64,000 nt of DNA, taken from NCBI RefSeq assembly GCF_014075995.1, contig NZ_CP055153.1, positions 558,001 through 622,000 of the forward strand. Direction: 5' to 3'. This DNA comes from Adhaeribacter radiodurans (GTDB lineage Bacteria; Bacteroidota; Bacteroidia; Cytophagales; Hymenobacteraceae). The notes under the pieces are model-generated. The model had not been told where the DNA came from. It saw nothing but the letters and a program-made list of their open reading frames with translations, and did not search any database. This document shows positions 43,939-52,609 of this stretch, in pieces (position 1 is the first letter of the stretch; the number at the start of each line of letters is the position of its first letter). The position numbers and the translations under genes were made by a program.

Positions 43939-44048
43939 TTAATTTATATTTCCCCTACATCGGGATAGGAATTGGCACCTTTCAACAAAGGCTGATGGTT
44001 GCCAGAGGGTCAGGGAGCCTATTCTCTCGCCTCTTCTTTATAAATCAA
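43939..44048 (-). ncRNA. SAM riboswitch (S-box superfamily) upstream of metY
   Basis: Reading the minus strand from 44048: P1 left arm TTGATTTATA, a purine-rich GAGGCGAGAG turn, GGCTCCCTGACCCTCTGGC and AACC, then the hallmark AAAGGTGCCAATTCC, a CCCGATGTAGGGG hairpin, and the P1 right arm TATAAATTAA (43948-43939). P1 pairs over 10 bp with one G-U. These are the conserved core features of SAM-I/SAM-I-IV aptamers, which switch off methionine genes when S-adenosylmethionine is high. Which subtype it is cannot be settled by eye. About 240 nt lie between it and the metY ATG, and no clear terminator stem is seen there. Confidence 0.9.
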
Positions 44049-48785: not shown

Positions 48786-50531
48786 ATGCTTAGAACCCAT
48801 ACTTGTGGCGAATTAAGATTAGAAAATGTAGGACAGGAGGTTACCCTTACTGGTTGGGTGCAACGTACCCGCGACAAAGGCGGTATGCTTTGGGTTGATC
48901 TGCGCGACCGGTATGGCATTACTCAATTAAAGCTCGAGGAAGGAATTACTCCAGCCGAAACTATTAGCCAAGCGCGTAATTTAGGCCGCGAATTTGTAAT
49001 TAAAGCCACTGGTACCGTAATCGAGCGAATATCTAAAAACGATAAGCTACTCACCGGCGATATTGAAATACAATTACATGATTTAGCCGTTCTGAACCCG
49101 GCTAAATTACCACCTTTTTTAATCGAAGACGATACGGATGGGGGCGATGATTTGCGTATGAGATACCGCTACCTGGATTTACGACGCAGCAGCGTACGCA
49201 AAAATCTGGAACTTCGTCACCGCATGATGCAACAAACCCGGGCTTACCTTGATGGCTTGCAGTTTATTGAGGTAGAAACTCCCGTATTAATTAAATCAAC
49301 TCCCGAAGGAGCCCGCGATTTTGTGGTACCTAGCCGGATGAACCCGGGTGAGTTTTATGCCTTGCCGCAATCGCCGCAAACGTTTAAGCAATTGCTCATG
49401 GTATCGGGGTTCGATAAGTATTTTCAAATTGTGAAGTGTTTTCGCGACGAAGATCTACGAGCCGATCGCCAGCCTGAGTTTACCCAAATAGACTGTGAAC
49501 TTTCTTTTATTTCGCAGGAAGATATTCTGAATACTTTTGAAGGGTTGGTAAAGTACTTGTTTAAAACAGTACGCGGGGTAGAAGTGCCGGAGTTTCCCCG
49601 GATGACTTACGCCGATGCCATGAAGTACTACGGCAATGATAAACCGGATACTCGTTTTGACATGCGTTTTGTGGAGATGAATAGCTTTGTGCAAAACAAA
49701 GGATTTAAGGTTTTTGACGACGCTCAATTAATAATTGGAATAAATGTTACCGGCGCTGCTTCTTATACCCGCAAGCAATTAGACGAATTAACCGAGTTTG
49801 TAAAACGACCACAACTGGGAGCTACTGGCTTAATTTATGCCCGCGTAGAAGCAGATGGTACGGTAAAATCATCGGTAGATAAATTCTTTAATCAGGAGGC
49901 TCTGCAGCAATGGGTACAAGCATTTGCGGCTAAACCCGGTGATTTACTTTTAGTAATTGCGGGGGCCGCTGATAAAGCCCGTAAAGCCTTATCAGAATTA
50001 CGTTTAGAAATGGGAGAGCGCTTAGGTTTACGCGATAAGAATACTTTTGCGCCTCTGTGGGTGCTGGATTTTCCGCTGCTGGAATACAACGAAGAAGAGA
50101 AACGTTATTTTGCCATGCACCATCCTTTTACCTCACCCAAGCAGGAAGATTTTAGCTTACTAGAAACGGACCCGGGGGCTGTTCGGGCCAACGCCTACGA
50201 TATGGTAATTAACGGCGTAGAAGTAGGAGGCGGTTCTATCCGGATTCACGAGCGGCCCTTACAGGAACGCATGTTTAAATTATTAGGCTTTACCGAAGAA
50301 GAAGCACGCGAGCAGTTTGGCTTTTTATTAAATGCCTTCGAATACGGAGCTCCACCGCACGGAGGTATTGCCTTTGGTTTTGATCGATTGTGTTCTTTAT
50401 TTGGTGGAGCCGACTCTATCCGCGATTTTATTGCTTTCCCTAAAAACAACTCTGGTCGCGATACCATGATTGATTCTCCGTCGCCGATTGCCGAAGCGCA
50501 GCTGAACGAACTGAATATCCGGTTGAAATAA
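48786..50531 (+). CDS. aspS: Aspartyl-tRNA synthetase
   Basis: A 581-residue class II synthetase of the bacterial type. An N-terminal OB anticodon-binding domain ([20 protein letters not shown]) is followed by motif 2 ([24 protein letters not shown]), the bacterial-specific GAD insertion (about 280-420) and motif 3 ([17 protein letters not shown]). Full family length. It charges tRNA-Asp; whether it also misacylates tRNA-Asn depends on the presence of AsnRS elsewhere. A terminator follows. Confidence 0.97.
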
Positions 50532-50648: not shown

Positions 50649-51113
50649 TTATAGTAGCTGAACGGGCCGGCTAATACTTTCTTCAAGGGAAATAAAAGTT
50701 TCGGTTCGTTGAATACCCGGTATTTTCTGGATTTTATCCGTTAAAACGTTTTTAAGGTGCATGGTATCTTTGCAAATAAGTTTGGCAAACATGCTGTAAA
50801 TTCCCGTAGTATAATTTACGCTAATTACTTCTGGTATCCGACGGAGTTGCTCTAACACCTCGTTATACATAGAGCTTTTGCGCAGGTAAATTCCCAAAAA
50901 AGCATTTACATCATAACCCAGATTACCATAATTTAACTTTAATTGGGTACCGGTTACGATTCCCATTTGTTCCATTTTTTTCATCCGGACGTGGACGGTA
51001 CCACCCGAAACAAACACTTCTTTTCCTACATCTGCATACGCCATTTTCGCGTCTTCCATCAGCAGAGAGAGGATTTTAAGATCCGTATTGTCAATTTCTA
51101 AATTTTTGAGCAT
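50649..51113 (-). CDS. Lrp/AsnC family transcriptional regulator
   Basis: 154 residues. An N-terminal winged HTH (LDIKILSLLMEDAKMAY-like region, then VFVSGGTVHVRMKKMEQMGI) is followed by the RAM ligand-binding domain (AFLGIYLRKSSMYNEVLEQL, IPEVISVNYTTGIYSMFAKL). It would bind DNA as dimers or octamers and respond to an amino acid. A TACTTTTG box at 51150-51143 on the minus strand is a possible -7 element. It is divergent from the tRNA-like unit starting about 120 bp away, so the two share a control region. Confidence 0.92.
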   Translation of the reverse strand: MLKNLEIDNTDLKILSLLMEDAKMAYADVGKEVFVSGGTVHVRMKKMEQMGIVTGTQLKLNYGNLGYDVNAFLGIYLRKSSMYNEVLEQLRRIPEVISVNYTTGIYSMFAKLICKDTMHLKNVLTDKIQKIPGIQRTETFISLEESISRPVQLL

Positions 51114-51199: not shown

Positions 51200-51230
51200 T
51201 TGAAGTAATTAATTTTAAGCCGTATATTTG
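51200..51230 (+). promoter_or_regulatory. Promoter of the tRNA-like RNA
   Basis: TTG at 51200-51202 within TTTTG, a 20-base spacer and TATATTTG at 51223-51230, a full consensus match. A start near 51235 lies about 12 nt before the cloverleaf. Confidence 0.7.
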
Positions 51231-51247
51231 AATAAATAAAAACACAC

Positions 51248-51377
51248 TGTAGGGTGTTGAAACTGGCAGACATGCCCTCCTCTCTCGGGGGTGGAGATAA
51301 ATAGGATAAAGCGTTTTCGACCTCTAAGTTGATTCTTGCCTAACTACTCCGTGGAGGTTCGATTCCTTCCCCTACAG
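51248..51377 (+). ncRNA. Class II tRNA-like RNA with very long variable arm and CUC anticodon loop
   Basis: A cloverleaf can be drawn. Acceptor TGTAGGG (51248-51254) pairs with CCCTACA (51370-51376), extendable by C51247-G51377 to 8 bp. The D-loop AAACTGGCAGA matches the tRNA-Leu type; its stem is weak. The anticodon stem CCCTC/GGGGG encloses the 7-base loop CTCTCTC (51280-51286), giving CUC at 34-36 with T at 37. The variable arm is about 60 nt (51293-51352), closed by GGAG/CTCC and inner TAGG/CCTA. The T-arm GGAGG-TTCGATT-CCTTC is canonical. No CCA is encoded. CUC would read the Glu codon GAG, but tRNA-Glu is class I. A dedicated promoter and terminator flank it, so it is probably expressed. 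It could be an aberrant or repurposed tRNA, or a tRNA-Leu-derived pseudogene. Confidence 0.7.
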
Positions 51378-51379
51378 CT

Positions 51380-51416
51380 AAAAAGCCTCTTCGTTTCAAA
51401 CGAAGAGGCTTTTTTA
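51380..51416 (+). terminator. Intrinsic terminator of the tRNA-like unit
   Basis: AAAAAGCCTCTTCGTTT pairs with AAACGAAGAGGCTTTTT and runs into T's, starting 3 bases after the acceptor stem. It fixes the 3' end of the transcript. Confidence 0.9.
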
Positions 51417-51793
51417 TTTATTTCGGAAATATTTCGGACACTAGATTTATTTAGGTAAGCACTTAACTACTCTTTAACTTGCTTTGTTAAGTTATAATTT
51501 TAGGAATTATAACTTAAGCCGTCTTAATGAAAGATACTTAGAATGGTATAGGTTTACCTAAATCCGTTTTGGTTTTAAAGAACTCCTCTAAAATGCTAAT
51601 ACATTCTAATTGAAGGTAAACTAAGTAGTTGGTTTCGTTGCCTATATGGCTATCCGCAATTAAGCTTTTTCCCACTCCCTTCATGTCCCAGATGGAATGA
51701 GATCCATTTACATTAGAGTAAACCAGAAAAGAAAGGTTACTTTTATTTATCTTATTGGGGAATATTATCTTTGGTATAACCAATTCCTTCCAT

Positions 51794-52609
51794 ATGCCGG
51801 CACCTGACTTGGAACCTTCCGCGGAGATGGAAAAACTCTCCGGGATCGTCAAACGCATTACTTTCCACAGTGTGGATACCGGCTATACCGTGCTTAAGGT
51901 AAACAATTTTCAGAAGCCTCAGGAAGAAATCACGATACTGGTGCATCAATCCAAAGTGTTTGCCGGAGCTACCCTTGACTTTTATGGGCAGTGGATCACG
52001 CATACGAGTTATGGTCTGCTATTTAAAGCTACTAAAGTTATTGAACGGAAACCGGCTACGGCTAACGCCCTGGAAAAGTACTTAGGTTCCGGAATTAATT
52101 AAAGGGGTAGGCCCGGTAACTGCAAAAAGAATTGTGAAGCATTTTGGCGCTTAAACCCTGAAGGTGTTTGAATCAAATATCGAAAGATTAACCGAAGTAG
52201 AAGGAATTGCTAGATTGAAGCTGGAAATGATCCGCCAGGCCTGGATAGAACATCAGGAAATTAGGAATGTCATGTTGTTTTTACAATCTCATAATATTTC
52301 TACTTTGTTTGCGGTCAAAATTTATAAAACGTATGGCAACAATGCCATTGAGATGGTTCAAAATAATCATTATCGCTTAGCCATGGTCATCTAAGGCATT
52401 GGCTTTTCTCGACCGATAAAGTGGCCTCAAGTCTAGGTTTGATAACTAATCCTCCTCAGCGGATACTGAACGTCATTGACCATGCGCTGCTAAATGCACA
52501 GGAATAAAGGTACTGCCATTTCACCCAACAACTAAAAATTCCAAATGGTAAGTGCTTAGTCACAAAGGATTATAAAGTAGAATTCCTAAAATTGATGGAA
52601 TACTATTAA
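51794..52609 (+). pseudogene. Decayed N-terminal fragment of a RecD2-type DNA helicase
   Basis: The conceptual translation matches the N-terminal region of RecD2-like helicases across several frames: SGIVKRITFHSVDTGYTVLKV, then after a frame change near 52097 IKGVGPVTAKRIVKHFGA, an in-frame stop, IERLTEVEGIARLKLEMI, FLQSHNISTLFAVKIYKTYG, another stop and shift near 52393, and STDKVASSLGLITNPPQRIL. These are the OB-like and helix-hairpin-helix parts that precede the helicase core in RecD2. The ATPase motifs are missing altogether. It is therefore a dead, truncated copy; the cut end abuts the IS630 remnant. Confidence 0.85.

What the first reader, a model, noticed from the sequence alone, without database searches (positions are those of the whole stretch)
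51200..51416. Self-contained transcription unit for a non-canonical class II tRNA-like RNA
Seen: promoter (TTG-N20-TATATTTG), a cloverleaf with perfect acceptor and canonical T-arm, a Leu-type D-loop, a 7-base anticodon loop CTCTCTC, an about 60-nt variable arm and an immediate strong terminator. Known: class II tRNAs (Leu, Ser, Tyr in bacteria, Sec) have variable arms of roughly 10-25 nt and never CUC (Glu). The acceptor can extend to 8 bp. Inferred: an aberrant tRNA with a special role (recoding, regulation, priming, decoy for a synthetase) or a tRNA used as an integration site. Retention of promoter and terminator argues against simple decay.
Basis: partly seen in the sequence, partly recalled or inferred. 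Interest (0 to 1): 0.82.

Follow-up and report, generated by a model that had tools for sequence, protein, structure and literature searches.

The report
Asp/Asn-type tRNA that does not decode
An overlooked tRNA-shaped RNA, widespread in one order of bacteria and present in some of their viruses, looks built to carry aspartate for conversion into asparagine rather than to read the genetic code.

Summary
In detail: window 51248-51378 (+) is a class II cloverleaf with a promoter-like site and a terminator. It is a conserved RNA family, not decay: strong covariance hits in 198 of 243 genomes of the order, 19 of 64 sampled genomes in other orders of the class and 2 of 220 outside it, plus 75 stretches of uncultivated viral contigs. 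Helices covary. In 61 homologues (44 loci, 59 distinct sequences) U1-A72, G2-C71, U35, C36, C38, G73 and C74 never change, while 33 and 34 do and 37 is always a pyrimidine. That is most of the aspartate-identity set plus the GatCAB recognition pair of tRNA-Asn, in a loop unsuited to decoding. An AsnC-family gene (best PDB match E. coli AsnC) is divergent from the RNA in all 48 loci where found, of 83. Among genomes with GlnRS over cut-off, free-standing gatB is in 27 of 27 RNA+ and 2 of 17 RNA-. Best explanation: a non-decoding tRNA, aspartylated by AspRS, amidated by GatCAB, serving asparagine supply with AsnC as regulator. Charging is inferred, not shown.

The parts
51248..51378 (+). tRNA-like RNA gene, tRNA positions 1 to 74
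51248..51254 (+). acceptor 5' strand TGTAGGG; U1, G2 and U3 invariant in 61 of 61
51257..51273 (+). D-arm, 3-bp stem with Leu-type loop (A14 A15, G18 G19, A21)
51275..51291 (+). anticodon arm; stem has 9 fully paired versions among 61 homologues
51280..51286 (+). loop CTCTCTC (positions 32-38); U35, C36 and C38 invariant in 61 of 61, N34 = C here
51292..51352 (+). 61-nt variable region: 4-bp stem GGAG/CTCC, conserved GGATAAA and CTAAC motifs, lineage-specific inner part
51353..51369 (+). T-arm GGAGG-TTCGATT-CCTTC
51370..51378 (+). acceptor 3' strand CCCTACA, discriminator G73 and encoded C74
51200..51230 (+). promoter-like site TTG-N20-TATATTTG (that this is the Bacteroidetes type is recalled, not tested)
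51380..51414 (+). intrinsic terminator-like hairpin
50649..51113 (-). AsnC-family regulator, divergent from the RNA; best PDB match E. coli AsnC 2cg4 (E 1.9e-34)
48786..50531 (+). aspS, bacterial-type aspartyl-tRNA synthetase; within 1.5 kb only in the window's own genus among the loci fetched, so not part of the conserved unit

Best explanation
The RNA is a non-decoding tRNA. Like a normal tRNA transcript it is processed and given its CCA end. Its anticodon loop (U35 C36 C38) and G73 let aspartyl-tRNA synthetase load aspartate. Its U1-A72 pair lets the amidotransferase GatCAB turn the bound aspartate into asparagine. The irregular loop and long structured variable arm keep it out of the ribosome, so the product serves asparagine supply and not Asp codons. 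AsnC, divergent from it in many genomes, regulates it by asparagine level, as E. coli AsnC regulates asparagine synthetase A. Shown by comparison: conserved tRNA fold, invariant positions, AsnC synteny, gatB co-occurrence. Inferred: transcription, processing, charging, amidation, release of asparagine, exclusion from the ribosome, AsnC control. Estimates: tRNA-type RNA 0.95; non-decoding 0.85; AspRS substrate 0.65; GatCAB substrate 0.65; main role in asparagine supply 0.5.
For: Identity elements: in 61 homologues from blastn/CM loci (loop not imposed by a pattern) U1-A72, G2-C71, U35, C36, C38, G73 and C74 are 61 of 61, although the anticodon stem has 9 versions (44 loci, 59 distinct sequences). 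Aspartate determinants G73, G34, U35, C36, C38: PMC9976931 (passages). GatCAB recognises U1-A72 of tRNA-Asn: PMC4206432 (passages). In this genome tRNA-Asn has U1-A72 with G73, and tRNA-Asp has loop CTGTCAC. Non-decoding: U33 in only 50 of 61, a pyrimidine at 37 in 61 of 61. Seven genomes of one genus have a 77-nt class I form that lost the variable arm but keeps U1-A72, U35, C36, C38, G73. Synteny: AsnC divergent in 48 of 48 loci where found, of 83; start-to-start 122-229 nt. E. coli AsnC activates asnA, less so with asparagine: PMC8707732 (passages). In RNA-negative G310 an AsnC relative has a divergent asnB beside it. Co-occurrence over 80 hand-chosen genomes: gatB over cut-off in 45 of 45 RNA+. 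AsnRS over cut-off in 79 of 80. With GlnRS over cut-off: free-standing gatB in 27 of 27 RNA+ against 2 of 17 RNA- once G129 is moved (Fisher 5.9e-10; 4 of 17 and 4.6e-8 counting two fused genes). Five RNA+ genomes (G041, G046, G063, G403, G517) have no AsnA or AsnB over cut-off but do have AsnRS, GlnRS and gatB over cut-off.
Against: Transcription, charging and amidation are untested. G34, a strong Asp determinant, is C in this window and non-G in 15 of 61. G1-C72, which PMC9976931 calls crucial in bacterial tRNA-Asp, is absent here. Blastn and CM searches favour similar sequences, so invariance may be overstated. AsnRS is nearly everywhere, and 40 of 45 RNA+ genomes have an AsnB-family hit over cut-off; this genome also has AsnA, so the RNA is not generally the only route; of the five without, three (G046, G063, G517) have AsnB-like hits below cut-off at 174-219 bits. 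AsnC was not found in 35 of 83 loci; in 9 of 9 RNA+ genomes of that kind tested it lies elsewhere, and 15 of 29 genomes with no form of the RNA also have an AsnC relative. G087 and G272 have GlnRS and gatB without the RNA; 17 of 17 RNA- genomes without GlnRS have gatB. Fisher tests ignore shared ancestry. The conserved variable-arm motifs and the viral copies are not explained by AspRS and GatCAB alone.
Confidence: 0.5

Rival explanations
1. Sensor or decoy: the RNA binds or is charged by AspRS/GatCAB to report Asp/Asn status or hold back the enzymes, and is regulatory rather than biosynthetic.
For: AsnC neighbour; structured variable arm with conserved motifs that could bind another partner; AsnB-family genes over cut-off in 40 of 45 RNA+ genomes.
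Against: Tandem arrays of up to 5 copies (G138; Flammeovirga) and viral copies suggest bulk use; the 77-nt form lacks the variable arm.
Confidence: 0.17
2. Amino-acid donor: Asp- or Asn-loaded RNA feeds a ligase that modifies lipid, envelope or peptide, as known tRNA-dependent transferases do (recalled).
For: Non-decoding loop with complete acceptor, G73 and C74; gatB co-occurrence.
Against: In the fetched flanks (mostly 1.5 kb) the most frequent neighbour is AsnC; I recognised no transferase there but did not search for one.
Confidence: 0.12
3. Translation-linked RNA: an Asp-type tRNA used on the ribosome under special conditions.
For: ARAGORN calls tRNAs in 45 of 75 viral loci; one also has a tmRNA; G34-U35-C36 in 46 of 61.
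Against: Position 37 is never a purine and U33 is not kept; position 34 changes among G, C and A; long variable arm; 9 viral loci with tRNA-Asp(gtc) also carry it.
Confidence: 0.1
4. Decoy against tRNA-cutting toxins, or a tRNA fossil or integration site without a function of its own.
For: Viral carriage; a decayed copy beside AsnC in G226.
Against: Invariant identity positions, covariation, wide conservation, gatB co-occurrence.
Confidence: 0.05

Closest known systems
tRNA-dependent asparagine formation (AspRS plus GatCAB on tRNA-Asn), as in Bdellovibrio (PMC4206432, passages read)
   Same: Same inferred enzymes; U1-A72; argued there from GatCAB kept despite AsnRS and GlnRS and the absence of AsnA/AsnB, as in 5 RNA+ genomes here (over cut-off).
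   Different: There the carrier is the decoding tRNA-Asn. Here it is a separate RNA with an NUC loop, pyrimidine 37, Leu-type D-arm and (usually) a long variable arm, often beside AsnC.
E. coli AsnC and asnA (AsnC activates asnA; PMC8707732, passages read)
   Same: AsnC relative; here the RNA is its divergent neighbour in 48 of 83 loci. That E. coli asnC and asnA are divergent neighbours is recalled.
   Different: The gene opposite AsnC makes an RNA, not asparagine synthetase A.
Bacillus cereus pseudo-tRNA tRNA-Other (PMC3399842, abstract and outline read)
   Same: tRNA-shaped RNA outside translation.
   Different: Reported as part of longer regulatory RNAs and flanking a genomic island; here a compact unit with Asp/Asn-type invariant positions, found across an order and in viral contigs.
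tRNA-Leu (body) and tRNA-Asp (loop) of the same genome
   Same: D-arm and class II layout like tRNA-Leu; loop like tRNA-Asp CTGTCAC except at 34 and 37.
   Different: Full-length bacterial members listed score 88.4 bits or more; below the one 77-nt form (73.6) the next hits are 62.3 and lower, and those examined are mostly tRNA-Leu. G73, not the A73 of this genome's Leu tRNAs.

Membership tests
Decoding tRNA | complete acceptor, D, anticodon and T arms with elbow bases G18 G19 and T-loop TTCRA | tested here: met
Decoding tRNA | U33 and a purine at 37 | tested here: not met
   U33 in 50 of 61; a pyrimidine at 37 in 61 of 61. That these features are needed for decoding is recalled.
Rfam tRNA (RF00005) | match at the gathering score | tested here: not met
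   no match in the window even at E 10
Aspartate-identity tRNA | G73, U35, C36, C38 | tested here: met
   61 of 61; determinant list from PMC9976931
Aspartate-identity tRNA | G34 | tested here: inconclusive
   46 of 61 bacterial rows and 27 of 27 viral rows, but C34 in the window; not met for this copy
Aspartate-identity tRNA | G1-C72 | tested here: not met
   U1-A72 in 61 of 61
Aspartate-identity tRNA | aspartylated by AspRS | not testable with these tools
   needs a charging assay
GatCAB substrate | U1-A72 pair | tested here: met
   61 of 61; 26 of 27 viral rows
GatCAB substrate | GatCAB encoded in the same genome | tested here: met
   gatB in 45 of 45 RNA+ genomes; gatA and gatC not searched
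tRNA-dependent asparagine synthesis as sole route | no AsnA or AsnB | tested here: inconclusive
   5 of 45 RNA+ genomes have none over cut-off; the window's genome has hits over cut-off for both
tmRNA | tRNA domain plus tag-peptide reading frame | tested here: not met
   ARAGORN finds no tmRNA in the window

The most novel reading that the evidence does not exclude
A dedicated biosynthetic tRNA: a gene whose product is an RNA carrier on which an amino acid is made for metabolism, holding the place next to AsnC that an enzyme gene holds in E. coli, and also carried by viruses of these bacteria. In this reading GatCAB is retained in many of these bacteria for the RNA rather than for translation.
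Probability: 0.45. Interest if true: 0.95.

Novelty: new variant of a known kind. Interest (0 to 1): 0.85.

Why it matters
If true, some tRNA genes exist for amino-acid synthesis alone, and the retention of GatCAB beside AsnRS and GlnRS in many genomes of a large bacterial order gets a cause that a simple charging assay can test. Even without the mechanism, an RNA family with strong hits in about four fifths of the sampled genomes of an order (198 of 243) and present in viral contigs, yet unmatched in Rfam and missed by ARAGORN in its long form, is worth annotating.

Tried and rejected
Decay or integration-site reading: rejected by wide conservation and covariation. Single-sequence thermodynamics: uninformative. 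The inner two-pair helix I first drew in the variable arm pairs in only 43% of cells, and one of five covariation measures (further pair types, 44 of 500 shuffles) was not exceptional. TALLY lines (243 of 243; 286 of 296) count ordinary tRNA-Leu matches, so I counted the tables by hand: strong means best E below 1e-17 (45 of 243 weaker) and over 85 bits. Link to aspS: within the fetched flanks only in the window's genus (9 loci), dropped as a conserved feature. GenBank phages and PLSDB plasmids: no blastn match. Sole source of asparagine: not supported for most genomes. E. coli-type AsnB (my definition: profile match ending before position 390 in a 528-584 aa frame) in 12 of 35 RNA- and 0 of 45 RNA+; with AsnA over cut-off 15 of 35 against 3 of 45 (Fisher 2.6e-4): a weak, ancestry-confounded point.

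Literature: searches returned no paper; the listings of 71, 79 and 82 showed none that describes this RNA. Only open-licence PMC papers were searched.

Selections: alignment A1 has 29 of the 30 sequences extracted (L002 left out as near-identical to L001; L028, cut by a contig end, and L029 were not extracted there). For one search I gave 88 hand-picked loci. In one search I dropped 10 weak rows of 124: eight coincide with ARAGORN tRNA-Leu or tRNA-Asp calls, two (L274:7682-7830, L325:3170-3299) are unexplained. The 61 bacterial rows include tandem copies. The 80 genomes were hand-picked to span families with RNA status known; 17 of 97 were cut before any gatB result. In one search the loop TCTC, a T at 8 and acceptor and T-stem pairing were imposed, so only other positions are evidence. 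The pattern fixed most of the anticodon arm.

Full report
What is there. Window 51248-51378 (+) reads as a class II tRNA: 7-bp acceptor TGTAGGG/CCCTACA, Leu-type D-arm, 5-bp anticodon stem with loop CTCTCTC, a 61-nt variable region, T-arm, G73 and C74. A promoter-like TTG-N20-TATATTTG precedes it and a 16-pair terminator-like hairpin follows. ARAGORN reports no tRNA in the window and Rfam no tRNA match. The own genome has 43 RF00005 hits. The tRNAs that ARAGORN lists from them include five Leu anticodons plus Glu, Asp, Asn and Gln, so no decoding gap is apparent there; most encode only C74 after the discriminator, as this RNA does.

It is a real family. Blastn found homologues in 29 of 59 relatives. 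On an alignment of 29, 95.1% of cells pair (89.6% in shuffles), 10 pairs change on both sides, and the covariation score is 0.243 against 0.125 (0 of 500 shuffles). A covariance model from these separates family and tRNA: the lowest full-length member listed has 88.4 bits, then come a 77-nt form (73.6) and hits of 62.3 and less; of those weaker hits examined most are tRNA-Leu. By hand count, 198 of 243 genomes of the order have a best E below 1e-17. In the phylum sample strong hits are in 11 of 12 genomes of the order, 19 of 64 elsewhere in the class and 2 of 220 outside it. Of the 45 weaker genomes, seven carry the short form, G129 a copy cut by a contig end and G226 a decayed copy.

Invariant positions. 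In one search, 61 homologues (44 loci, 59 distinct sequences) all have U1-A72, G2-C71, U3-A70, G73, C74, U35, C36 and C38. The anticodon stem meanwhile has 9 different, fully paired sequences. Position 34 is G in 46, C in 8, A in 7; 33 is U in 50, G in 7, A in 3, C in 1; 37 is U in 59 and C in 2. Both search methods favour similar sequences, so rarer variants may be missed. A wider regex set of 281 distinct RNAs (loop TCTC imposed) has G73, C74 and G2-C71 in 281 of 281 and U1 in 278 of 281. PMC9976931 names G73, G34, U35, C36 and C38 as the main aspartate determinants. PMC4206432 names U1-A72 as the GatCAB recognition pair of many bacterial tRNA-Asn. The RNA thus joins an Asp-type loop to an Asn-type acceptor end, in a loop lacking the purine 37 and constant U33 of decoding tRNAs (recalled).

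A natural experiment. Seven genomes of one genus have a 77-nt version that ARAGORN calls tRNA-Asp(atc); the genus is Hymenobacter by a contig-length match (276,234). The variable arm is gone, the anticodon stem is replaced (CTAGC/GCTAG), yet U1-A72, U35, C36, C38 and G73 remain. AsnC was not found in the 1.5 kb around these.

Neighbourhood. The gene upstream on the minus strand is an AsnC relative: best PDB match E. coli AsnC (E 1.9e-34), best NCBIfam model AsnC though below its cut-off (164.5 against 227 bits). Of 83 loci examined, 48 hold it, all divergent from the RNA, start-to-start 122-229 nt; this includes two genomes outside the class (L131, L132). Some of the 83 loci are one genome seen twice. 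The link is not universal: in nine RNA+ genomes without it that I tested, AsnC relatives (57-66% identical) lie elsewhere, and 15 of 29 genomes with no form of the RNA also have an AsnC relative. E. coli AsnC activates asnA, less so with asparagine (PMC8707732). In RNA-negative G310 an AsnC relative (44% identical) has asnB divergent beside it; this was the only one of the 30 loci with asnA or asnB in its flanks.

Co-occurrence. Over 80 hand-chosen genomes (45 RNA+, 35 RNA-), free-standing gatB over cut-off is in 45 of 45 RNA+ and 20 of 35 RNA-. AsnRS is over cut-off in 79 of 80, GlnRS in 44. Where both exist GatCAB has no evident decoding duty: gatB is in 26 of 26 RNA+ against 3 of 18 RNA-, or 27 of 27 against 2 of 17 after G129 proved to hold a cut copy. 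RNA and gatB are jointly absent in families that also hold positives (f23 G261; f24 G275, G369; f14 G100, which keeps only gatB fragments), which suggests more than one loss, but no tree test was made. Where GlnRS is lacking all 36 genomes have gatB, which is uninformative. AsnA over cut-off is in 3 of 45 RNA+ and 4 of 35 RNA-. AsnB-family hits over cut-off are in 68 of 80; five RNA+ genomes have neither, though three of them have AsnB-like hits below cut-off.

A related oddity. G231, G247 and G095 have a gatA-like gene followed by one protein that is GatB in its first half and AspRS in its second. In G231 and G247 both halves are over cut-off, which shows Asp-to-Asn amidation enzymes being joined in this order, here in genomes where I found no RNA.

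Viral copies. 75 stretches of IMG/VR contigs carry the core pattern. Of ten proteins tested from such loci, two match terminase, one a portal protein, one partly a primase/helicase, three other phage families and three nothing. ARAGORN calls tRNAs in 45 of 75 loci and a tmRNA in one. G34 is kept in 27 of 27 viral rows and U1-A72 in 26 of 27. Some have an extra hairpin in the D-loop. In 28 sequences (17 viral, 11 bacterial) 20 of 33 predicted pairs have double changes, including 7 of 8 in a long variable-arm helix, and TTGACCAC or TAGACCAC is kept in 26 of 28, which suggests a further partner.

Mechanism and confidence. The most economical reading is a non-decoding tRNA loaded with Asp by AspRS and amidated to Asn by GatCAB, tied to asparagine supply under AsnC. 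The fold, invariants, synteny and gatB association are shown by comparison; transcription, charging, amidation, fate of the asparagine and AsnC control are inferred. Against it: C34 in this window, missing G1-C72, other asparagine synthetases in most RNA+ genomes, AsnC present without the RNA, and unexplained motifs in the variable arm. I give the whole mechanism 0.5.

Novelty. Rfam has no match and the literature searches named in Tried and rejected found no description. tRNA-dependent asparagine formation and pseudo-tRNAs are known (PMC4206432, PMC3399842); a separate RNA dedicated to it is, to my knowledge, not. I therefore file it as a new variant of a known kind, with the stronger reading in the section on the most novel reading.

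Noticed in passing
G231:C26 (L345), G247:C1 (L346), G095:C6 (L347): A gatA-like gene followed by one protein of about 1,100 aa that is GatB then AspRS (both over cut-off in L345 and L346; L347 by its frame). G231 and G247 lack the RNA; G247 also has no AsnA/AsnB over cut-off.
   Followed up: partly
L071 (G000:C2:4358352-4358622): A second odd tRNA of this genome: anticodon GCT (Ser) on a short-variable-arm body resembling its tRNA-Cys.
   Followed up: no
window 43941-44046 (-): SAM riboswitch, 73.6 bits.
   Followed up: no
window 51755-52102 (+): A 115-aa frame matches only the start of RecD2 helicase (profile 1-82 of 713), possibly a remnant.
   Followed up: no
L135 (G138), L138 (G166), L217 (Flammeovirga), G522:C84, G528:C68: Tandem arrays of 3 to 5 RNA copies, starts about 156-229 nt apart.
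   Followed up: partly
L286 4948-5517 (viral): Viral locus with the RNA, a tmRNA and 25 tRNA genes.
   Followed up: no
L274:7682-7830 and L325:3170-3299 (viral): Two weak long covariance matches (49.5 and 41.9 bits) that ARAGORN does not call tRNA; possibly diverged second copies.
   Followed up: no
L368 (G226): Decayed copy of the RNA still near AsnC; the T-loop motif and G73 look lost.
   Followed up: no
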